Source of the DNA: Pontibacter akesuensis
GTDB lineage: Bacteria; Bacteroidota; Bacteroidia; Cytophagales; Hymenobacteraceae
DNA: 64,000 nucleotides
Reading direction: 5' to 3'
Assembly (NCBI RefSeq): GCF_001611675.1
Contig: NZ_CP014766.1
Coordinates: 1,674,001 to 1,738,000 of the forward strand
Made by a program: the position numbers and the translations under genes. Position 1 is the stretch's first letter; each line of letters starts with the position of its first letter. The notes below the pieces were generated by a model. The model saw only the letters and a list, made by a program, of their open reading frames with translations, ran no database searches and was not told the origin of the DNA. Positions 3,457 through 43,427 of this stretch are shown here, one piece after another.

Positions 3457-4359
3457 TCAAAACCACAGCTGTTGCGCCAGCCGGAAGGTGTTGGCGTGGG
3501 CCTCTACGATATGCGCTATTTGCCTGGAGTAGCCGCCGCCCATACTTACCGCCACGGGCAGGTTGTGTTGCCGGCAAAGCTCCAGCACCGTGCGGTCGCG
3601 CTGTTTGCAGCCGTCTATGCTCATGCCCAGTTTGCCTAACTTATCGGTAGCCAGCACATCCACCCCCGACTGAAAAAACACGAACTCCGGCTGCACGGCA
3701 TCGAGCAGGCGCGGCAGGTGGTGCCGGAGCAGGTGCAGGTAAGTTTTGTCGTCCGTGCCCTCAGCCAGCGGTACGTCCAGGTCGGAGTTCTCTTTGTGGA
3801 AAGGATAGTTGTGGCCGCAGTGCATGCTGAAGGTAAACACGCGCGGCTCGTTTTCAAAGATCTGGGCAGTGCCGTTGCCCTGGTGCACATCCAGGTCCAC
3901 CACCAGCACTTTGCCGATGCCTTTATACCTGAGCAGGTGGTTTGCGGCAATGGCGATGTCGTTGAGCAGGCAGAAGCCCTCGCCGCGGTTGGTAAAGGCG
4001 TGGTGGGTGCCGCCGGCAATGTTCATCCCGATGCCATACTCCAGCGCAAACAAAGCCGCCTGCACAGTGCCGTTCATAATTACCACCTCGCGCTGCACCA
4101 GCTGCTCAGAAAGCGGAAAGCCTGTCTTCCGTACTTCGGAGGCAGACAGTTGCAGGTGGCTCAGGCGGTGCCAGTAGTCGGCGTCGTGCGTGTCAAGTAT
4201 AAACTGTGCGGGTAGTGGCTCCGGTGCAAAAAGATTATCAGAAGTAATGGTGCCCTCGTACAGCAGCTGCTCAGGCAGCAACTCATACTTCGCCATTGGG
4301 AAGCGGTGGTTCTCCGGCAGGCTGTGGGCGAATATCTCAGACCAAGCTATCTTCAGCAT
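3457..4359 (-). CDS. Histone deacetylase family protein (zinc-dependent deacetylase/amidohydrolase)
   Basis: This 300-residue single-domain protein of the arginase/deacetylase fold resembles class IV (HDAC11-like) bacterial enzymes. The catalytic His pair is at 119-120 (GGTHHAF). Zinc ligands are Asp157 and His159 in VVDLDVHQGNG and Asp234 in QSGVDVLATD. The N-terminal MPMAKYELLPE-like stretch is typical of bacterial members. Bacteria lack histones, so likely substrates are acetylated polyamines, acetylated protein lysines or acetoin-type metabolites. The sequence does not decide between them. The gene stands alone, with long gaps on both sides. Confidence 0.92.
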   Translation of the reverse strand: MLKIAWSEIFAHSLPENHRFPMAKYELLPEQLLYEGTITSDNLFAPEPLPAQFILDTHDADYWHRLSHLQLSASEVRKTGFPLSEQLVQREVVIMNGTVQAALFALEYGIGMNIAGGTHHAFTNRGEGFCLLNDIAIAANHLLRYKGIGKVLVVDLDVHQGNGTAQIFENEPRVFTFSMHCGHNYPFHKENSDLDVPLAEGTDDKTYLHLLRHHLPRLLDAVQPEFVFFQSGVDVLATDKLGKLGMSIDGCKQRDRTVLELCRQHNLPVAVSMGGGYSRQIAHIVEAHANTFRLAQQLWF

Positions 4360-4888
4360 ATCGCAAAGCTAACAAGAATTGCGCCGCCAAGGTTTAGTTA
4401 TACTTACAGGAGAGTCCCAAAACACAGGCACCACTTTCTCAGGCCAGTGCAATTAACAGCCTTACCAACTGCTGAGTTGATAAATTCTGAAACTTTTTCA
4501 GAATCGGCCCACGCAAGTGGAATTCCCCTTGTTTTCAGAGGTGTCATTGTGGATAACTATGTTAACTCAACAGGCTTATCCACGATTTTGTGTTGATTGC
4601 CTATTAACAAAGCCTGAAAAACGTAATATTCCATTAAAAACAACGGCGGCACTATATTTAGTTTAAGCCTTGTTTCTGGCTGCAAACGGAACCAACCAAG
4701 CCACCACATCCACTAATAATCACATTCTAACACCCTGCCTGCATTTATACTTTGTGGCGCTCATAAAAATCATTCCAGCAGCTCAGGTTTCCTGACGGGC
4801 ATGTACCTATAACCTGAGGAGATAAATCAAGTATAAACATAAGTAGATATTCTCAAGTATGGGAATCGATAAGCTAAAGCCACACACT
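4360..4888. other. Long intergenic gap with hairpin and DnaA-box pair
   Basis: About 530 bp separate two divergent genes, with no convincing ORF. A 96-codon frame here has no family features. The gap holds a perfect 9-bp inverted repeat ATTCTGAAA/TTTCAGAAT (4484-4504), a pair of DnaA-box-like sites (4548-4584) and AT-rich sequence after them. It also holds several TATACTT/AAGTATA motifs (4399, 4746, 4829). A TATACTTTG at 4746-4754 resembles a Bacteroidota -7 element with altered spacing and could drive the barrel gene downstream. Confidence 0.6.
4548..4584. promoter_or_regulatory. Inverted pair of DnaA-box-like sites
   Basis: TGTGGATAA at 4548-4556 is the exact complement of the consensus DnaA box TTATCCACA. 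TTATCCACG at 4576-4584 matches 8 of 9 in the opposite orientation. They are about 28 bp apart centre to centre, with a GTTAAC palindrome between them. The sequence match is certain. Binding by DnaA, or an origin role, is inference. No dnaA, gidA or other origin-linked gene is in the window. Confidence 0.4.
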
Positions 4889-5518
4889 ATGAAAAAGCAA
4901 CTGTTACTCGCGCTACTGATGATCTTTTCAGTGACGGGTTATGCACAGATAGAAGGTCCTAACCCGGTAAACCAAAACCATAACTTGTTCAGCAGGTCAC
5001 CTAACTCAGGTATCGGTATAAAAGGCGGCGTCAACTTCTCGAACGTGCACGGCAGCGATGCCGATATCTATGGCGAAACAAACAATTTCACGTCTTTTCA
5101 CGCTGGTATCTTTGCCCAGTTTGCCATCAGCGAGGAATTCTTCTCTATTCAGCCCGAGCTGCTTTATACCCGCAGGGGCTTTGAGCGGCAGGACTCGGTT
5201 TTCAGGTTCGACTACCTTGAAGTGCCTGTACTGGCCGTGTTCAATATTTCCGACAGTTTCAGCGCACACCTTGGCCCGCAGGTGGGGGTGATGATGTCAT
5301 CCAAGCAGGAGGACAAGGAAATTGACCTGGAGCCCTACAACACGTTTGACTATGGCCTTGCCGCTGGCCTGGAGGCACGTTTTCTGGAGCGCCTGAGGGT
5401 AGGAGCACGCTACGTCCACAGCTTTGCCGACCTGCGCAAGGAAGACGACAACGGCAACAGCATCGACCAGAATATAAAGACGGGGGTGATACAGGTGTAC
5501 CTGGGCATCAGCCTATAG
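4889..5518 (+). CDS. PorT-like outer membrane beta-barrel protein
   Basis: This 209-residue secreted protein has a signal peptide (MKKQLLLALLMIFSVTGYAQ). GIKGGVNFSNVHG follows soon after, the usual first strand of Bacteroidota OMP_b-brl_2/PorT-like barrels. Alternating amphipathic strands continue to the C-terminus, which ends in a hydrophobic strand VIQVYLGISL. The frame is open back to an ATG at 4859. The internal ATG at 4889 is preferred because it starts directly at the signal peptide. The function is an eight-strand-sized barrel of unknown ligand. A hairpin terminator follows. Confidence 0.82.
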   Translation: MKKQLLLALLMIFSVTGYAQIEGPNPVNQNHNLFSRSPNSGIGIKGGVNFSNVHGSDADIYGETNNFTSFHAGIFAQFAISEEFFSIQPELLYTRRGFERQDSVFRFDYLEVPVLAVFNISDSFSAHLGPQVGVMMSSKQEDKEIDLEPYNTFDYGLAAGLEARFLERLRVGARYVHSFADLRKEDDNGNSIDQNIKTGVIQVYLGISL

Positions 5519-7147: not shown

Positions 7148-7705
7148 CTAGCGGTTGTGCTTTCCTTCGGCAAACTCCTCTATCATCTTCTTATTGAAGG
7201 CCGGGATGTCGTCCGGGTTGCGGCTGGTTACCAGTCCCTGGTCCACTACCACTTCTTCGTCTACCCAGTTTGCGCCAGCGTTTACCAGGTCCGTCTTCAA
7301 CGTGTGGTAGCTGGTCATTTTCCTGCCTTTCACCTTGCCGGTTTCAATCAGCGTCCAGGGGGCGTGGCAGATAGCCGCCACCGGTTTGCCGCTTTCCATA
7401 AAGCTGTTCACAAAGCTCACGGCCTCTTTGTTGGTGCGCAGGTTGTCGGGGTTCATCACGCCGCCGGGCAGCAGCAGGCCGTTGTAGTCGTTGGCGTTTA
7501 CCTCGCTTAGCTTCTTGTCTACCTTAAATTTGTCGCCCCATTCGGTATGGTTCCAGGCTTTGATTTCGCTGTTTTCGTTCGGGGAGATGATGTGAGCCTC
7601 GGCACCCGCGTCTTTCAACGCTTGCATGGGCTTGGTAAGCTCCACCTGCTCAAATCCCTCTTCTACCAGTACTGCTATTTTCTTTCCCTCTAATTTATTC
7701 GCCAT
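7148..7705 (-). CDS. DJ-1/PfpI family protein (type 1 glutamine amidotransferase-like)
   Basis: This 185-residue protein is the usual size for PfpI/YhbO proteins. The nucleophile elbow is AAICHAPW with Cys113 and His114. The conserved Glu lies in the N-terminal VEEGFEQVE, and GLLLPGG is the family strand-turn. Homologues act as chaperone/deglycase or glyoxalase III-like enzymes that handle carbonyl stress. Protease activity is less likely in this subgroup. The gene is transcribed alone towards the strong bidirectional terminator. Confidence 0.93.
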   Translation of the reverse strand: MANKLEGKKIAVLVEEGFEQVELTKPMQALKDAGAEAHIISPNENSEIKAWNHTEWGDKFKVDKKLSEVNANDYNGLLLPGGVMNPDNLRTNKEAVSFVNSFMESGKPVAAICHAPWTLIETGKVKGRKMTSYHTLKTDLVNAGANWVDEEVVVDQGLVTSRNPDDIPAFNKKMIEEFAEGKHNR

Positions 7706-7909
7706 TCTTAAGTTTGTTTTATTGGTTAAACATTGTCTAGTTCTATAAATAACGCGCCCACGCCTTATTTGTTAAAGCGCAGCTAACGCAATTCCCTCCT
7801 TTTAACTACTACCCTTCCCTATACTTGTGCAGGTGCGCCGCGCAGCCTTCACTAACTACCATCCCTAGCACTAGTGATTATGCAGGCAAGCCGTCAAAAT
7901 CAATCTTCC

Positions 7910-7932
7910 TTATTTGGATTCAGTCTAAACAA
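7910..7932. promoter_or_regulatory. Candidate iron-responsive (Fur-like) operator
   Basis: An imperfect dyad, TTATTTGGATT-C-AGTCTAAACAA (11-1-11), matches 8 of 11 between its arms. It overlaps the -33 side of the promoter for a siderophore-type TonB receptor, which is where a repressor would act. Similar ATTTAGATT-type dyads are known to me upstream of iron genes in Bacteroidota. The identity of the bound protein is inferred. Confidence 0.5.
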
Positions 7933-7945
7933 TGCGGTAAGTTTG
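7914..7945 (+). promoter_or_regulatory. Bacteroidota-type promoter for the TonB receptor
   Basis: TTG at 7914-7916 and TAAGTTTG at 7938-7945 are separated by 21 nt. This fits the TTG/TAnnTTTG consensus exactly. Transcription should start near 7952. Confidence 0.65.
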
Positions 7946-8080
7946 TATGCAATCAGAACCTAAGGGGCAAAAGCGAAGCGCATTCTGGTGTTAAAACACC
8001 CTGCAGAGCATGCCGCCGCAGCACGCGCAAGTAAAGTTCTGATAAAGTAAAATCATCAAACCACCTATATACACCTGGTA

Positions 8081-10519
8081 ATGTTTAAGAAATATATACT
8101 TATCTGCCTGTGCTTCCTTTTTACGCAACTGGCATGGGCCCAGCACAGAAGTTCGGCCATTCAAGGGCGGGTACTGCAGGAGAGCGGGGGGCCACTCGCT
8201 GCTGCCAGCATTGTAGTAGAAAACACCAACTTCAGCACCGTAACCGATGATAACGGTTACTTTAAGATCATCCACCTGCCGGAAGGGGCTTACCAGGTGC
8301 GGGCCATGATGCTGGGCTTCAACAGCATGGCAGAAGCGGTGACATTAGGCAAAGGGGAGACAAAAACCATCCGCTTTAACTTGCCGGCCAAAGCCAACCA
8401 GGTAACCCAGATCGAGGTGTTCGGGGAGCGCGACAAGCAGCCGGAGAAACTCGATGCCATCACCCGCCTGCCACTAAAGCCGAGCGAGCAAATCCAGAGT
8501 ATTTCGGTTATCTCGGAAAGGCTGATTGAGCAGCAGGGCGCCCTGACAGTTATCGAGGGCGTGCGTAATGTGCCGGGCGTTTATACTTATGCTACGTTTG
8601 GCGGTGTGCGGGAGAGCATTTCCTCACGTGGTTTCCGCGGTATCCCTACTCTCAAAAACGGGGTGCGTGTGATGACGGATTTCCGTGGTGGCGGCTTCTC
8701 TACCGACATGCAGGGCGTGGAGAGTGTCCAGGTGCTGAAGGGCGCCAGCGCTATTACCATGGGTGCCAGTACTGATCTGGGCGGGCCGGGCGGCATTGTG
8801 AACATCGTTACCAAAACGCCTAACTTCGAGAACTCTGGTACCGTATCGCTGCGCGCCGGTAGCTGGGGCCTGATTCGACCTACGTTTGATGTGCAGCGCG
8901 TGGTGGATGCAGACGGGAAGCTTGCGGTGCGCCTGAACGGTGCCTACGAAAACGGCGGCAAGTTCCGCGACCATATGGACAACGAGTCGTTCTACATCAA
9001 CCCTTCAGTGGAGTGGCGACCAAACGCCAAAAGCACCCTGACGCTAGAGATGGATTACTTCAGGGAAGAGCAGGCAATTGACGCGGGAACGGTTAATCTC
9101 TCAGTAGGCAATGAGGAGAACCTGATCTATGACCTGCCTTCGGAAAGATTCCTTGGTTTTGAATCCGACAAGACCGATATCAAGCATGCCACCTACGCCG
9201 CCCGCTACAAGTATGACCTGACAAACAATTTATACTTGCGCGCCGCCTTCTTTAACTCCAACTACAACTCCGACGGCATTCGAACAGGCTTGTCGGCTTT
9301 GAAGAAAGATGCGGCCAAAGATATAAACGTAGACCAGGTGAACTGGTACCGGCGCTCCATCGCCCACAACAACACCCGCGAAGACAACAGCACTGTGTTG
9401 CAGTTCGACCTGGTGGGCCGCGAGTTGGAGACAGGCAACATCAAGCATACGTTTCAGGTGGGAGCCGATTACCGCTACATCGATTTGTTCCAGCCTACTT
9501 ACAACTCTATCGCAATTGACCAGATCAACGTGCTCGATCCATCCACGGTAACGAATGTACTGCCGGAGACTGTTCCTGCTTTTGAGCGCACTGGCGGCAC
9601 ACAGGCCTACGACTACCGCTTTGGGGTAACGCTGCAGGATGTGATTCAGCTGACGAACTGGGCGAGAGTGTATGGCGGCGTGCGCTACAGCACGAACAAG
9701 TCTAAAGACGAAGGCGAGGAGAGCGCCACCTCCGAGTTTTGGAACCCACTGGCGGGCGTGATGTTTACGGTAAAAGACGGCCTGAACATCTTCGGCTCCT
9801 ACACCAACAGCACCAACCCGCGCTCTGCCGCCGTGGTGGACGTAAACGGCAACCCGCTGGGAGCTGAGCGCATCAATCAGTTTGAGGCCGGCATTAAGTC
9901 AGAGTGGCTGAACGATCGCCTGCGCTTCAACCTTACCTTCTACCAGATCAACAACAAGGACATGAACCTGAAAGCCTTTATGGTGGATGAGAACGGTACC
10001 GTGCTGGAGACAGGTTACTACATAAAGGGCGGTAACGACGAGCGCAAAGGCATTGAGGTGGAGCTGACAGGCCGCGTGCTGGAGAACCTGGAGGTAGTGG
10101 CGGGCTATGCCTACATCGACGCACAGTATAAAGAGCATACTACTTTTGTACCGGGCTCTGCGCCTAACAACACACCGAAGCACACCTTTAACGCCTACGC
10201 CAACTACACTGTGCAGAGCGGCATTCTGGAGCGGTTAAACTTCGGAGCAGGCGCTTACTACCTGGGCGAGCGCCCTTACAACGACTGGACGGTGGCAGGC
10301 GTGGAATACCATGCCATAGAGCCTAACACCGCCCCGTGGTACAACAAGGCCTATACAATCGTGAATGCGCAGATCGGCTACGAATTTGAGAAGCACTGGG
10401 GCGTGCGGGCCCTGTTCAACAACGTGCTGAACGAGGTGGGATACGATGCCTACCGCTCCAACTACATCGACCGGATCCAGCCGAGAAATTTTTCAGGGGT
10501 AGTTACTTACAGATTTTAA
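8081..10519 (+). CDS. TonB-dependent siderophore receptor
   Basis: This 812-residue outer membrane receptor has a signal peptide ending at AQ (about 21). A carboxypeptidase-regulatory-like domain (AIQGRVLQ... to about 100) follows. The plug then begins near LKPSEQIQSISVISERLIEQ and contains SSRGFRG and GGPGGIVNIVTK. The 22-strand barrel ends in an aromatic-terminated strand, FSGVVTYRF. The plug and the C-terminal YRSNYIDRIQPRNF pattern match the siderophore-receptor subfamily (TIGR01783-like). It should import a ferric chelate using TonB energy. A Fur-like dyad upstream and a PepSY membrane protein downstream support iron uptake. Confidence 0.95.
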   Translation: MFKKYILICLCFLFTQLAWAQHRSSAIQGRVLQESGGPLAAASIVVENTNFSTVTDDNGYFKIIHLPEGAYQVRAMMLGFNSMAEAVTLGKGETKTIRFNLPAKANQVTQIEVFGERDKQPEKLDAITRLPLKPSEQIQSISVISERLIEQQGALTVIEGVRNVPGVYTYATFGGVRESISSRGFRGIPTLKNGVRVMTDFRGGGFSTDMQGVESVQVLKGASAITMGASTDLGGPGGIVNIVTKTPNFENSGTVSLRAGSWGLIRPTFDVQRVVDADGKLAVRLNGAYENGGKFRDHMDNESFYINPSVEWRPNAKSTLTLEMDYFREEQAIDAGTVNLSVGNEENLIYDLPSERFLGFESDKTDIKHATYAARYKYDLTNNLYLRAAFFNSNYNSDGIRTGLSALKKDAAKDINVDQVNWYRRSIAHNNTREDNSTVLQFDLVGRELETGNIKHTFQVGADYRYIDLFQPTYNSIAIDQINVLDPSTVTNVLPETVPAFERTGGTQAYDYRFGVTLQDVIQLTNWARVYGGVRYSTNKSKDEGEESATSEFWNPLAGVMFTVKDGLNIFGSYTNSTNPRSAAVVDVNGNPLGAERINQFEAGIKSEWLNDRLRFNLTFYQINNKDMNLKAFMVDENGTVLETGYYIKGGNDERKGIEVELTGRVLENLEVVAGYAYIDAQYKEHTTFVPGSAPNNTPKHTFNAYANYTVQSGILERLNFGAGAYYLGERPYNDWTVAGVEYHAIEPNTAPWYNKAYTIVNAQIGYEFEKHWGVRALFNNVLNEVGYDAYRSNYIDRIQPRNFSGVVTYRF

Positions 10520-10543
10520 GCAGACCTGCTAAAACAATAAAAA

Positions 10544-10572
10544 AAGGTGCCGACATTTGCTGTCGGCACCTT
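10544..10572. terminator. Hairpin between the TonB receptor and PepSY gene
   Basis: A perfect 12-bp stem, AAGGTGCCGACA/TGTCGGCACCTT, has a 5-nt loop. The plus side lacks a T-tract, so it may only attenuate or stabilise the receptor mRNA within one operon. It would act as a full terminator only on the minus strand. Confidence 0.6.
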
Positions 10573-10611
10573 CCGTTCTTCAAAACCTTATCCATTTCTA
10601 AACTTTTAAAG

Positions 10612-11850
10612 ATGAAAAAGAGCTATAGCCTGCGAAAGCTTTTCAACGATGTGCACCTCTGGCTGGGCATTGCCAGCGGCTTGGTTTTATTTGTCGTTTG
10701 CCTGAGCGGCACCATTTATACTTTCCGCACAGAGGTGGAGGAGATGCTGGAGCCCAACAAGTATAAAGTGGAGGCCGGAGCCAACGCGCAGGTTCTTTCG
10801 CCGGATGCGCTTGTCGCCAAACTGGAGCAGGAGTTGAAAGGGCAGGTCGTGTCGCTGGAGATTCCGCAAGATAAAGCGCTTGCCTACCGTGTTGGTGTGG
10901 CACAGAAGCCTGAAGCCGGTGAACACGGTAAGAAAGAAGGCGCTGCCGCACCAGGCAAAAAAGCTGAAGCCAAAGGAGGGCATGGCGGTGGCAGACCAAC
11001 TACCTACCTGGTAAACCCTTACACCGGCGCCGTGCTGGGCACACCTGAGGGCCCGGCCACAGAGTTTTTCTCGACAGTAATGCAGTTGCACCGCTGGCTG
11101 CTGATAGACGGTGGCGTAGGCAAAATGATCGTGGGTGTTTCAACTATTATCTTCACGTTTCTGGTGCTGACAGGCCTTGTGCTGTGGTGGCCCAAGAAGA
11201 TCAAGAACTGGAAGCAGGGCCTTAAGGTTAAAACGGATGCCAATTGGAAGCGCATCAACCACGACCTGCACAACACCTTTGGTTTCTACGCCTTCCTGCT
11301 GCTGCTGATCATGTCGTTAACCGGCCTTTGCTGGTCGTTTGATTGGTACCGCGAAGGCCTGAGCAAGGTGATGGGCGCTGAAGTGTTCAAAGGCCGCCGT
11401 GAGAAGCCCATGTCTACCGTGGCCACTGCTGATGCAAAAGACCTGACTTTGGTTGATTACCTGGCGAAAGCCGCTCCCCTGCTGCCAGCTGATGGAGATA
11501 CCAAAATATCTATTCCGGCAGATGACACGACGGCAGTGGTTGTCTCTAAAAGCCAGGCAGGCTTCTTCGCCCTCGCCGCTTCTGACAAAGTACAGCTGGA
11601 CCAGCACAATGGTGAAACCCTGAAAGTAGAGCTGTTTGCCGACAAGCCTCTGAATGAGCAAATCGTGTCGCTCATCAAGCCGCTGCACCTGGGCGATGTG
11701 TATGGTACTTTCTCTAAGATTCTATACTTCTTCGCCTGTCTTATCGCCACCAGCTTGCCCGTTACCGGCACGCTGATCTGGATCAACAAGCTCCGCAAGA
11801 AAAAACCAGCGAAGAAAGCCGCCCGTACCGCTGCTCCGGTAGCAGGTTAA
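10612..11850 (+). CDS. PepSY-associated transmembrane protein (iron uptake partner)
   Basis: This 412-residue inner membrane protein of the PepSY_TM family starts 92 bp after the receptor. Helix 1 follows the RKLFNDVHLWLGIASGL motif, with the conserved His in VHLWLG. Further helices lie near MIVGVSTIIFTFLVLTGLVL, GFYAFLLLLIMSLTGLCW and YFFACLIATSLPVTGTL. The periplasmic PepSY region carries a Lys/Gly/His-rich insertion at about 99-128 (GKKEG, KGGHGGG), which could bind metal. Family members paired with siderophore receptors are thought to reduce ferric siderophores in the periplasm. That role is inferred here from neighbourhood. Confidence 0.9.
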   Translation: MKKSYSLRKLFNDVHLWLGIASGLVLFVVCLSGTIYTFRTEVEEMLEPNKYKVEAGANAQVLSPDALVAKLEQELKGQVVSLEIPQDKALAYRVGVAQKPEAGEHGKKEGAAAPGKKAEAKGGHGGGRPTTYLVNPYTGAVLGTPEGPATEFFSTVMQLHRWLLIDGGVGKMIVGVSTIIFTFLVLTGLVLWWPKKIKNWKQGLKVKTDANWKRINHDLHNTFGFYAFLLLLIMSLTGLCWSFDWYREGLSKVMGAEVFKGRREKPMSTVATADAKDLTLVDYLAKAAPLLPADGDTKISIPADDTTAVVVSKSQAGFFALAASDKVQLDQHNGETLKVELFADKPLNEQIVSLIKPLHLGDVYGTFSKILYFFACLIATSLPVTGTLIWINKLRKKKPAKKAARTAAPVAG

Positions 11851-11955: not shown

Positions 11956-12030
11956 CCCACCCCTGCCCCTCTGGGGAGGGGAGTTATCAGCAGTAGTGAA
12001 ACATCCCCCTATCCCCTTCAAAGGGGGACT
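11956..12030. repeat. Two GC-rich REP-like hairpins in tandem
   Basis: CCCTCTGGGGAGGGG (around 11963-11980) and CCCCTTCAAAGGGGG (around 12013-12027) are members of families found in other gaps here (3309, 19271, 29489, 29658, 43043, 62414, 62866). Each can form a short G/C-only hairpin. They lie between genes only. Confidence 0.75.
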
Positions 12031-12063
12031 TAGCCTTTGTTGCATCACAATAGCTTCAGCTAA

Positions 12064-12367
12064 TTGAACTGATTCCAGTCCTTGGGTTGAGCGCCTTGTG
12101 CATGTTGCGGTGCCCGTAAGGGCAGCCCGCAGCGGAGCGAATAGAGGGCCCCTACCCCCGGAGCAGCTTCAGGCACACAGCGCGATGCCCGAGGACGGGG
12201 CCTCGCGGCCGTGAGCGCTCCAAAGTGCAAGGTGAAACGTTAGGTATTTGGGAACTGGAGGATGAACGGCAGCTAGTAAGGATAGCTTGGTTGAAGTTGC
12301 GGTAAACAATGGCTATGCAAGTATGGCAGAGGCAGCCGACGGCACAAGCGGACGCTTGCACCAGGTA
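12064..12367. repeat. Dispersed 300-bp repeat, copy 1
   Basis: This region is clearly related to 43141-43427 (same orientation) and 18841-19069 (reverse). Shared landmarks are CCAGTCCTTGGGTTGAGCGC, the hairpin GCCC-GTAA-GGGC with a GNRA-type loop, CGCGATGCCCGAGGACG, GCGGCCGTGAGCGCT, ATTTGGGAACTGGAGGATGA, and a terminal hairpin CAAGCGGACGCTTG. This copy alone has a short insertion after CGGAGCGA. A minus-strand frame of about 100 codons covers it. No transposase or target duplication is evident. Confidence 0.85.
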
Positions 12368-18840: not shown

Positions 18841-19069
18841 CCTGCTTCCGCAACATGAGCCAAGCTATCCTTTCTAGCTGCCGATCATCCTCCAGTTCCC
18901 AAACACCAACTGTTTCACCTCTTGCTGTGGAGCGCTCACGGCCGCGAGGCCTCGTCTTCGGGCATCGCGCTTGGAGCTTTTCTTTGCTCGCTTCGCTTTG
19001 CAATCCCGCCTCCAGCGGGACCGAAAAACTCACATAGGCGCTCAACCCGAGGACTGGAATCGGTTTGAG
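18841..19069. repeat. Dispersed 300-bp repeat, copy 2 (reverse orientation)
   Basis: Read on the minus strand this copy runs CCAGTCCTCGGGTTGAGCGC, then GCGATGCCCGAAGACGAGGC, GCGGCCGTGAGCGCT, GGGAACTGGAGGATGA. It lacks the GTAA hairpin block, which is replaced by unrelated sequence rich in AAGCGAAGCGAGC. A plus-strand frame through it encodes SSSSSQTPTVSPLAVERSRP, very like the frames through copies 1 and 3. Confidence 0.82.
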
Positions 19070-34232: not shown

Positions 34233-34410
34233 TTATGAATTAAGAATTAGAAATTATGAATGACATTTAATGTATCTAGTATGATTGTTTGAAGTGTAAA
34301 GTATGAACAGTAGCAAGTATGGATAACTTGAAAAGGACTATCCTCTAAAGAAGCAGAGATTACCATCTATTGAAACACCATTCGTAATTCTTCATTCATA
34401 ATTCATAATT
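34231..34410. repeat. AT-rich inverted repeat flanks (AATTATGAATTA family)
   Basis: AATTATGAATTA at 34231-34242 recurs in inverse form within 34382-34410. Such ATTATGAATT words are frequent between Bacteroidota genes. No ORF is between them. Confidence 0.5.
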
Positions 34411-39093: not shown

Positions 39094-39181
39094 AGCAAAA
39101 AGCAATTTTAATATTGGTTTAATTTAGCTGATAGCTTCCGGTGCTACTTTAGCGTTTAGTTGCCGTTATACAGTTCGCCCA

Positions 39182-39262
39182 CAAGATCCTTTCAGGATGA
39201 CAGAGAAGTATGGTTGAAGTAGCTCCAGGCGAGTTTTATCCCCCGCCTGGGGGTAGGGGCCC
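39182..39262. repeat. Two short intergenic repeats
   Basis: CAAGATCCTTTCAGGATGAC (39182-39201) is a hairpin-forming repeat also found at 42963 and, inverted, at 29577. CCCCGCCTGGGGGTAGGGGC follows near 39241. Both sit in the 262-bp gap after cdaA. Confidence 0.7.
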
Positions 39263-42741: not shown

Positions 42742-43140
42742 TTAGATACGTTGTACTTCACAGTTCCAGCGCAACGCAAGCTATTATGCTGCTGTTTTAA
42801 GCCGGTAGTATACAAAGATAATAAAATCCACTTGCTGCACCCGGCTCCGGTGGCAGTTGGTTTACCGGTGTTGGTAAATAAGGTGCGTTTACATTCGTTT
42901 AAGTTTACGGTTGGTTTGCCTTAAGTGAAAGCTTCGTTGTTTTAGTCTGATTGCGCTTCTACCAAGATCCTTTCAGGATGACAAATGGGAGTAGGAGAAG
43001 TGAATCAGGAAAAGGCCGGTTAGTGACTCCGCAGAAGCATGAACATCCCCCTGCCCCCTTCAAAGGGGGACTACCCCTCCCCAACCCTCCCCTAAAAGCA
43101 GGGGAGGGAGTTAGGCTGAAGCTCCGCCAGCAGTGGCTAT
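42742..43140. other. Repeat-rich gap before repeat copy 3
   Basis: There is no gene. It contains an extended ATCCTTTCAGGATGACA repeat (42963-43003), then GC-rich hairpins at 43043-43071 (CCCCCTTCAAAGGGGG) and 43073-43111 (CCCTCCCCTAAAAGCAGGGG). Confidence 0.7.
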
Positions 43141-43427
43141 TTGAACTTATTCCAGTCCTTGGGTTGAGCGCCTTGTGCATGTTGCGGTGCCCGTAAGGGC
43201 AGCCCGCAGCGGAGCGAGGAGCAGCTTCAGGCGCACAGCGCGATGCCCGAGGACGAGGCCTTGCGGCCGTGAGCGCTCTAAAGCCAAAGGTAAAACAGTA
43301 GGTATTTGGGAGCTGGAGGATGAGCTGTGGCTAGAAAGAATGGCTTGTCTGAAGTTGCGAAAGCGGCGGCAAAGCAAAGTATGACAGAAGCCTTTAAAGG
43401 CACAAGCGGACGCTTGCGCCAGATAAT
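43141..43427. repeat. Dispersed 300-bp repeat, copy 3
   Basis: Same orientation and order of landmarks as copy 1: CCAGTCCTTGGGTTGAGCGC, GCCC-GTAA-GGGC hairpin, GCGATGCCCGAGGACGAGGC, GCGGCCGTGAGCGCT, GGTATTTGGGAGCTGGAGGA and the terminal hairpin CAAGCGGACGCTTG. It is about 17 bp shorter than copy 1. A minus-strand frame encodes SSQIPTVLPLALERSRPQGL, close to those in copies 1 and 2. Confidence 0.85.

What the first reader, a model, noticed from the sequence alone, without database searches (positions are those of the whole stretch)
12064..12367. Three copies of a ~300-bp intergenic element with conserved hairpins and a shared reading frame
Copies at 12064-12367, 18841-19069 (reverse) and 43141-43427 share long blocks: CCAGTCCT.GGGTTGAGCGC, GATGCCCGAGGACG, GCGGCCGTGAGCGCT, ACTGGAGGATGA. 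Copies 1 and 3 also share a GCCC-GTAA-GGGC hairpin and a terminal CAAGCGGACGCTTG hairpin. The antisense frames keep a SSSSSQ-PTV-P---ERSRP-G-V-GHRA pattern in all three copies. It could be a structured RNA family, a non-autonomous mobile element, or a fossil of a coding gene.
Basis: partly seen in the sequence, partly recalled or inferred. Interest (0 to 1): 0.62.

Follow-up and report, generated by a model that had tools for sequence, protein, structure and literature searches.

The report
Mosaic pseudoknot RNA repeats in Pontibacter
The three look-alike stretches are copies of an undescribed folded RNA that occurs about 60 times between genes in this Pontibacter genome and, in a shorter form, across the order Cytophagales; its base pairs, including a pseudoknot, have been kept by matching mutations, so the RNA fold matters even though its job is unknown.

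Summary
The three window copies belong to a dispersed family: 62 matches in this genome (genus Pontibacter), most other Pontibacter genomes, and lower or variable copy number in 5 families of the order. The functional core is a ~115-nt RNA: a three-part stem (P2/P3/P4) with an exchangeable top, then a compact H-type pseudoknot. All helices are supported by compensatory changes (255 double-change cells in 44 sequences; pseudoknot pair C-G 43, G-C 19, U-A 16). No Rfam family matches. The 'shared reading frame' is not coding. Copies avoid genes and lie mostly downstream of a gene, in sense. In one genus the RNA is single-copy at one conserved position; in Pontibacter copies are mosaic: two top modules, plus a ~20-nt GAGGGCCCCTACCCCC insert present or absent at four fixed sites. 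Six or seven copies share a place with the nearest relative, and at five of these module or inserts differ. No target duplication, clean insertion junction or linked mobility gene was found. I read it as a BOX/ERIC-like transcribed repeat carrying a conserved RNA domain that acts in cis on mRNA 3' or intercistronic regions; RNA-dependent mobility is the main rival. Fold: shown. Function and mobility: inferred.

The parts
12036..12324 (+). Copy 1, whole Pontibacter repeat unit (5' TTGCATAGC-like arm to GCTATGCAAGTAT arm), module A with one insert
   Evidence: alignment of 40 copies; R1 match 12073-12289
12074..12222 (+). Copy 1 RNA core (P2/P3/P4 stem plus pseudoknot)
   Evidence: R2 match, E 4.9e-22
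12078..12086 (+). P2 5' strand GTCCTTGGG, pairs with 12188-12196
   Evidence: covariation
12188..12196 (+). P2 3' strand CCCGAGGAC
   Evidence: covariation
12091..12094 (+). P3 5' strand GCGC, pairs with 12180-12183
   Evidence: invariant in Pontibacter, covaries order-wide
12180..12183 (+). P3 3' strand GCGC
12097..12101 (+). P4 5' strand TGTGC, pairs with GCACA 12173-12177
   Evidence: covariation, e.g. TGTAATTG/CAATTGCA in other copies
12112..12123 (+). P5a hairpin GCCC-GTAA-GGGC inside module A
   Evidence: covariation; GCCAC/GTGGC in other species
12141..12159 (+). Site-2 insert ATAGAGGGCCCCTACCCCC, absent from most copies
   Evidence: present/absent comparison of copies
12199..12217 (+). 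H-type pseudoknot: GGCC 12199-12202 / GGCC 12207-12210; loop CGC 12204-12206 / GCG 12215-12217
   Evidence: loop pair covaries G-C/C-G/U-A; 8 different complementary triplets order-wide
18861..19059 (-). Copy 2 (module B, no insert)
   Evidence: R1 match; core 18928-19058
43150..43347 (+). Copy 3 (module A, no insert)
   Evidence: R1 match; core 43151-43280
12341..12362 (+). Separate REP-like palindrome GGCACAAGCGGACGCTTGCACC next to copy 1
   Evidence: present in many but not all copies
43399..43420 (+). Same REP-like palindrome next to copy 3
12014..12027 (.). Upstream CCCCTTCAAAGGGG hairpin, another accessory repeat; other copies have different hairpins here

Best explanation
The element is a small interspersed repeat that is transcribed together with the gene before it and folds into a defined RNA: a long stem (P2-P3-P4) with an exchangeable top, followed at once by a compact pseudoknot. 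In Pontibacter it has spread to about 60 intergenic places and the copies exchange internal parts. SHOWN: the fold and its conservation; absence from genes; sense-strand bias behind genes; mosaic structure; conservation as a single locus in one genus. INFERRED: it acts in cis in the mRNA, as a structured 3' or intercistronic domain that sets where the transcript is cut, ends or is protected from RNases, like ERIC and BOX repeats; it multiplied non-autonomously with the help of an unknown enzyme and/or recombination; copies swap modules by gene conversion.
For: Covariation: A1, 26 sequences, 50 double-change cells, 0/500 shuffles; A2, 85 Pontibacter copies, 191 double-change cells, pseudoknot pair C-G 43 / G-C 19 / U-A 16 although the pseudoknot was not in the model; A4, 44 distinct sequences from families f1, f5, f11, f19, 255 double-change cells, 95.6% of cells paired against 30-41% when slid; pseudoknot triplet complementary in 72 of 99 distinct cases against 29.8 +- 3.9 when shuffled. 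Strand: many U-G pairs in P2 (66 of 85 at one pair) would be A.C mismatches on the other strand. Constraint inside copies: core identity 95-97% between copies against 69-73% in the adjoining tail of the same copies. Position: 60 copies, none inside genes; preceding gene in sense 45:15, tandem pairs 23 sense:9 antisense; other Pontibacter 57:22, other genera 28:8 with median 78 nt behind the stop codon; some lie in operon gaps such as between susC- and susD-like genes. Single-copy orthologous locus in four g11 species. Mosaicism: 17 module/insert combinations in 60 copies; at 7 orthologous places (6 with both flanks matching, 1 with one flank) module or inserts differ at five, differ by one site at a sixth, and a paralog is closer than the ortholog in all 7.
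Against: No RNA-seq was available, so transcription and a cis effect are inferred from position only. The sense bias is moderate and partly explained by avoidance of promoters (22 convergent, 6 divergent of 60). Gene calls came from my own hexamer scoring, not a standard gene finder. No common function of the flanking genes was looked for systematically. Window copy 3 lies upstream of a conserved promoter-like region, not obviously in a transcript.
Confidence: 0.5

Rival explanations
1. A selfish non-autonomous mobile element whose RNA (or folded single-stranded DNA) is the substrate of a mobilising enzyme in trans; the fold is conserved for mobility, not for the host.
For: Copy number swings from 0-1 to about 60. 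Most positions are not shared: copy-3 site empty in the 29 other genomes compared, copies 1 and 2 matched only by elements in the opposite orientation; only 6-7 of 17 copies placed in G019 are shared with G000. Clusters of copies in G088.
Against: No target duplication or shared ends beyond the 115-nt core in 16 copies of genus g5; no clean junction at the copy-3 empty site; no recurrent neighbouring ORF noticed; the two Y1-transposase (RAYT-like) genes are not next to copies; single-copy vertical inheritance in g11.
Confidence: 0.3
2. A multi-copy trans-acting small RNA made from 3' UTRs or own promoters, for example one that titrates an RNA-binding protein; copies are gene doses of one RNA.
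For: Strong fold conservation with variable flanks; many near-equal cores per genome.
Against: No conserved promoter or U-run terminator around the core in the g5 alignment; only one copy per genome in g11.
Confidence: 0.12
3. A recombination site that works as folded single-stranded DNA, in the manner of integron attC sites.
For: Sits behind genes in sense; module and insert exchange between copies.
Against: Strand-specific U-G pairs and a covarying pseudoknot fit RNA better; no search for an integrase was made.
Confidence: 0.05
4. A fossil of a protein-coding gene (antisense SSSSSQ frame).
For: The peptide pattern is present in the three window copies.
Against: Lengths spread over all classes modulo 3 (22/19/16); best frame open in only 30 of 57 copies; pair-preserving, not codon-type, changes.
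Confidence: 0.01

Closest known systems
BOX repeats of Streptococcus pneumoniae (PMC3049150)
   Same: Small modular interspersed repeats, intergenic, secondary structure in RNA, some expressed, enriched between convergent genes, roughly half of insertions shared between strains, size varies by internal modules.
   Different: No sequence relation claimed; BOX varies by tandem boxB number, here by two alternative tops and a ~20-nt insert at four fixed loops; here a pseudoknot core is conserved across an order and is single-copy in one genus.
ERIC/IRU (RU-1) repeats of enterobacteria and NEMIS/Correia of Neisseria (PMC2229807)
   Same: About 100-200 bp, dispersed, transcribed with neighbours; the review reports that ERIC orientation decides destabilisation of the upstream mRNA. 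The 155-bp Correia element is the 107-bp one plus a 50-bp internal sequence.
   Different: Those are long stem-loops with terminal inverted repeats (NEMIS with TSD); here a multi-helix RNA with pseudoknot and no TSD detected.
REP palindromes with RAYT (Y1) transposases
   Same: The genome has two RAYT-like genes and a REP-like palindrome follows many copies.
   Different: The core is not a simple palindrome; the REP-like palindrome is absent from many copies.
Rfam structured RNA families, including HEARO/omega-RNA type and group I/II introns
   Same: Large conserved RNA fold, some of them mobile.
   Different: No Rfam match at the element in Pontibacter or distant loci.

Membership tests
Structured RNA (any) | Compensatory changes that keep helices | tested here: met
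Known Rfam 15 family | Match to a covariance model at the element | tested here: not met
   gathering and E-value searches
MITE / classical non-autonomous transposon | Terminal inverted repeats at the element ends | tested here: inconclusive
   Pontibacter units have TTGCATAGC...GCTATGCAA arms; the g5 copies have none
MITE / classical non-autonomous transposon | Target-site duplication | tested here: not met
   none seen in the g5 alignment or at the copy-3 empty site; few sites examined
BOX/ERIC-like transcribed interspersed repeat | Many dispersed intergenic copies, not in genes | tested here: met
   62 matches; none of 60 examined copies inside genes
BOX/ERIC-like transcribed interspersed repeat | Co-transcription with neighbours | not testable with these tools
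   only positional support
BOX/ERIC-like transcribed interspersed repeat | Sequence homology to BOX or ERIC | not tested
   no direct alignment to BOX or ERIC sequences was made
REP/BIME | Core is a short palindrome linked to a RAYT gene | tested here: not met
   multi-helix core; RAYT-like genes not adjacent to a listed copy
Protein-coding gene or fossil | Frame kept across copies | tested here: not met
Integron attC | R'/R'' core sites and a linked integrase | not tested
   considered from memory only

The most novel reading that the evidence does not exclude
An order-wide RNA that began as a single functional locus and was amplified, independently in Pontibacter and other lineages, into a genome-wide set of exchangeable RNA cassettes attached to mRNA 3' ends, with tops and a ~20-nt insert swapped between copies: either a new class of dispersed cis-regulatory RNA or an RNA-dependent mobile unit with an unknown mobilising enzyme.
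Probability: 0.3. Interest if true: 0.8.

Novelty: new variant of a known kind. Interest (0 to 1): 0.62.

Why it matters
Most bacterial interspersed repeats are simple palindromes treated as junk. This one carries a conserved multi-helix RNA with a pseudoknot, exists both as one inherited locus and as dozens of dispersed copies, and swaps internal modules. That makes two questions testable with point changes: does an interspersed repeat earn its keep as RNA in the mRNA that carries it, and how do such repeats spread without a visible transposase. It also adds an undescribed RNA family to the Cytophagales.

Tried and rejected
Coding fossil: rejected. Known RNA family: no Rfam match. Two proteobacterial pattern hits (L175 Azohydromonas, L192 Sulfuritalea) come from long-ORF regions; one gave no R1 match, the other only E 0.015: taken as chance. 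One viral-contig pattern hit (L457) gave no R2 match; no plasmid or phage match. Conserved orthologous position of the window copies: not found. Clean empty-site junction for copy 3: not found. A first automatic classification of insert sites used too loose patterns and is not used; replace it. P1 (CAG/CUG closing pair) looked plausible but its covariation was not established. A weak R1 match at window 34274-34330 (E 1.7e-4) is at most a tail fragment. The literature searches listed no paper that by title or abstract describes this element; only open-licence papers were searched and few were opened.

Full report
OBSERVATION. The three stretches share the quoted blocks in the stated orientation. 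A DNA search of the genome in which the window lies gives 40 long places; a covariance model raises this to 62. Copies are 70-87% identical to window copy 1. A pattern scan of named genomes hit almost only Pontibacter records (P. mucosus, P. chinhatensis, P. populi, P. ruber and others), so the genus is Pontibacter. 21 of 24 other genomes of the genus have matches by plain DNA search.

ANATOMY. Aligning 40 copies shows a unit of about 250-350 bp. Its centre is P2 (GUCCUUGGG/CCCGAGGAC), P3 (GCGC/GCGC), P4 (variable, e.g. UGUAAUUG/CAAUUGCA or UGUGC/GCACA), an apical module of two alternative kinds (A: GCCC-GUAA-GGGC hairpin and a second hairpin; B: CCCGC-GGGA-GCGGG hairpin and GCGAAGC), then at once an H-type pseudoknot (GGCC-UCGC-GGCC-GUGA-GCG). 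A ~20-nt sequence, GAGGGCCCCTACCCCC with short adapters, is present or absent at four fixed sites: after P2 5' (inverted), in the loop of module A, inside P2 3', and in the pseudoknot hairpin loop. It recurs at the same sites in other species. When sites 1 and 3 are both filled, as in L005 and L037, the inserts can pair and lengthen P2 (my reading). A thermodynamic fold of copy 1 gives the same P2-P5.

IT IS AN RNA. On 26 sequences 95% of cells pair and 50 have changes on both sides, 0 of 500 shuffles reaching this. On 85 copies from other Pontibacter genomes, aligned with a model that lacks the pseudoknot, the middle pseudoknot pair is C-G 43, G-C 19, U-A 16, U-G 2, one mismatch. P2 contains a U-G pair in 66 of 85, which would be a mismatch on the other strand; so the strand read in window copy 1 (+) is the RNA strand.

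WIDER FAMILY. Model R1 found weak but structurally correct matches in other families of the order. A second model of the 116-nt core (R2) found 41 of 390 genomes and 12 of 129 genera positive: at least 8 copies (the number scored) in several genera of the same family and in g5; single or few copies in f11, f15 and f19; none among the listed g16 genomes of the same family. Genomes not used in the model matched down to E about 1e-16. On 44 distinct sequences, chiefly from f1 genera, f5, f11 and f19, 255 cells show changes on both sides (the alignment was fitted to the P2-P6 structure, the slid controls give 28-47). The loop triplet of the pseudoknot is complementary to the downstream triplet in 72 of 99 distinct cases, using eight different triplets, against 30 expected by shuffling. 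In g5, 16 copies are alike only over this core; the flanks are unrelated and no duplication is seen. No Rfam family matches.

NOT CODING. Element lengths fall into all three classes modulo 3 and no frame is open in more than 30 of 57 copies.

WHERE IT SITS. None of 60 copies lies inside a called gene. The gene before the copy is on the same strand in 45 of 60; tandem pairs 23 sense to 9 antisense (p 0.02), pooled with other genomes 61 to 28 (p 6e-4, copies not fully independent). Convergent places are over-represented (22 of 60 against 11 of 61 gene pairs in the window), divergent ones rare (6 of 60). Outside Pontibacter the core starts a median 78 nt behind a stop codon and sometimes fills the gap between two genes of one operon. 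In four g11 species the only copy sits at the same place, in sense, between a deacetylase-like gene and a Gfo/Idh-type oxidoreductase gene.

HOW IT EVOLVES. Positions of the three window copies are not shared in the same orientation by any of about 30 relatives. Against the nearest relative (G019), 6 of 17 placed copies share both flanks and one more shares one flank. At five of these 7 places module type or insert sites differ, at a sixth one site differs, and the G019 copy is closer to a paralog than to its ortholog in all 7. Sixty copies show 17 module/insert combinations. L064 joins halves of two module types and so loses P4. This points to exchange between copies, or to repeated insertion at favoured places. 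Inside the same copies the RNA core is 95-97% identical while the tail is 69-73% identical, so the core is constrained or selectively homogenised.

MECHANISM. Shown: fold, strand, dispersal, position, mosaicism, constraint. Inferred: co-transcription and a cis effect on the mRNA. ERIC is the best precedent: it is co-transcribed, and its orientation decides the fate of the upstream mRNA (PMC2229807). BOX is the best precedent for modular spread and enrichment between convergent genes (PMC3049150). An RNA-dependent mobile element is the main rival; the lack of duplications and of a linked enzyme, and the single inherited locus in g11, argue against pure selfishness but do not exclude it.

LIMITS. 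No expression data; gene calls by a home-made hexamer score; copies are not independent samples; genome searches were capped and, on large sets, run with stricter filters, so absence is not proof.

Noticed in passing
window 39249-39261; L412 and L413 (G000:C1:689994, 3219336): The G-rich insert core GGGGGTAGGGGCC(C) also occurs in the loop of a second, unrelated palindromic repeat (TGTCATCCTGAAAGGATCTTG...AAGATCCTTTCAGGATGACA, L412/L413) and near a copy of it in the window: it seems to be a promiscuous mini-insert of hairpin loops.
   Followed up: partly
window 39181-39203 and about 42965-42985: CAAGATCCTTTCAGGATGACA, half of another interspersed palindromic repeat of this genome.
   Followed up: no
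window 12000-12032, 43040-43120: CCCCCTTCAAAGGGGG, TCCCCTCAAGGGGA and CTCCCC...GGGGAG hairpins stand upstream of most copies as interchangeable accessory repeats.
   Followed up: partly
G000:C1:3811409-3811954 (L414), 3267538-3268086 (L415): Two RAYT-like Y1 transposase genes, likely partners of the REP-like GGCACAAGCGGACGCTTGCGCC palindrome.
   Followed up: partly
L390 (G088), 3600-5060, 7300-8260, 9680-10880: Repeat islands with several copies of the core within 6-7 kb, some carrying a CTCCCTTCTCCC...GGGAGAAGGG hairpin inside the element.
   Followed up: partly
L390 1547-1982: Array of 21-bp tandem repeats in the same contig.
   Followed up: no
L395 (G207) 4411-4560: The g11 copy in this species has an extended pseudoknot hairpin (GGCGGGGCCGCC insertion), so inserts at this site occur outside Pontibacter too.
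   Followed up: no
window 34274-34330: Weak match to the tail of model R1 (E 1.7e-4) in AT-rich sequence; perhaps a decayed tail fragment.
   Followed up: partly
L002 956-1064 (-): SAM riboswitch near another copy of the element (Rfam RF00162, 72 bits).
   Followed up: no
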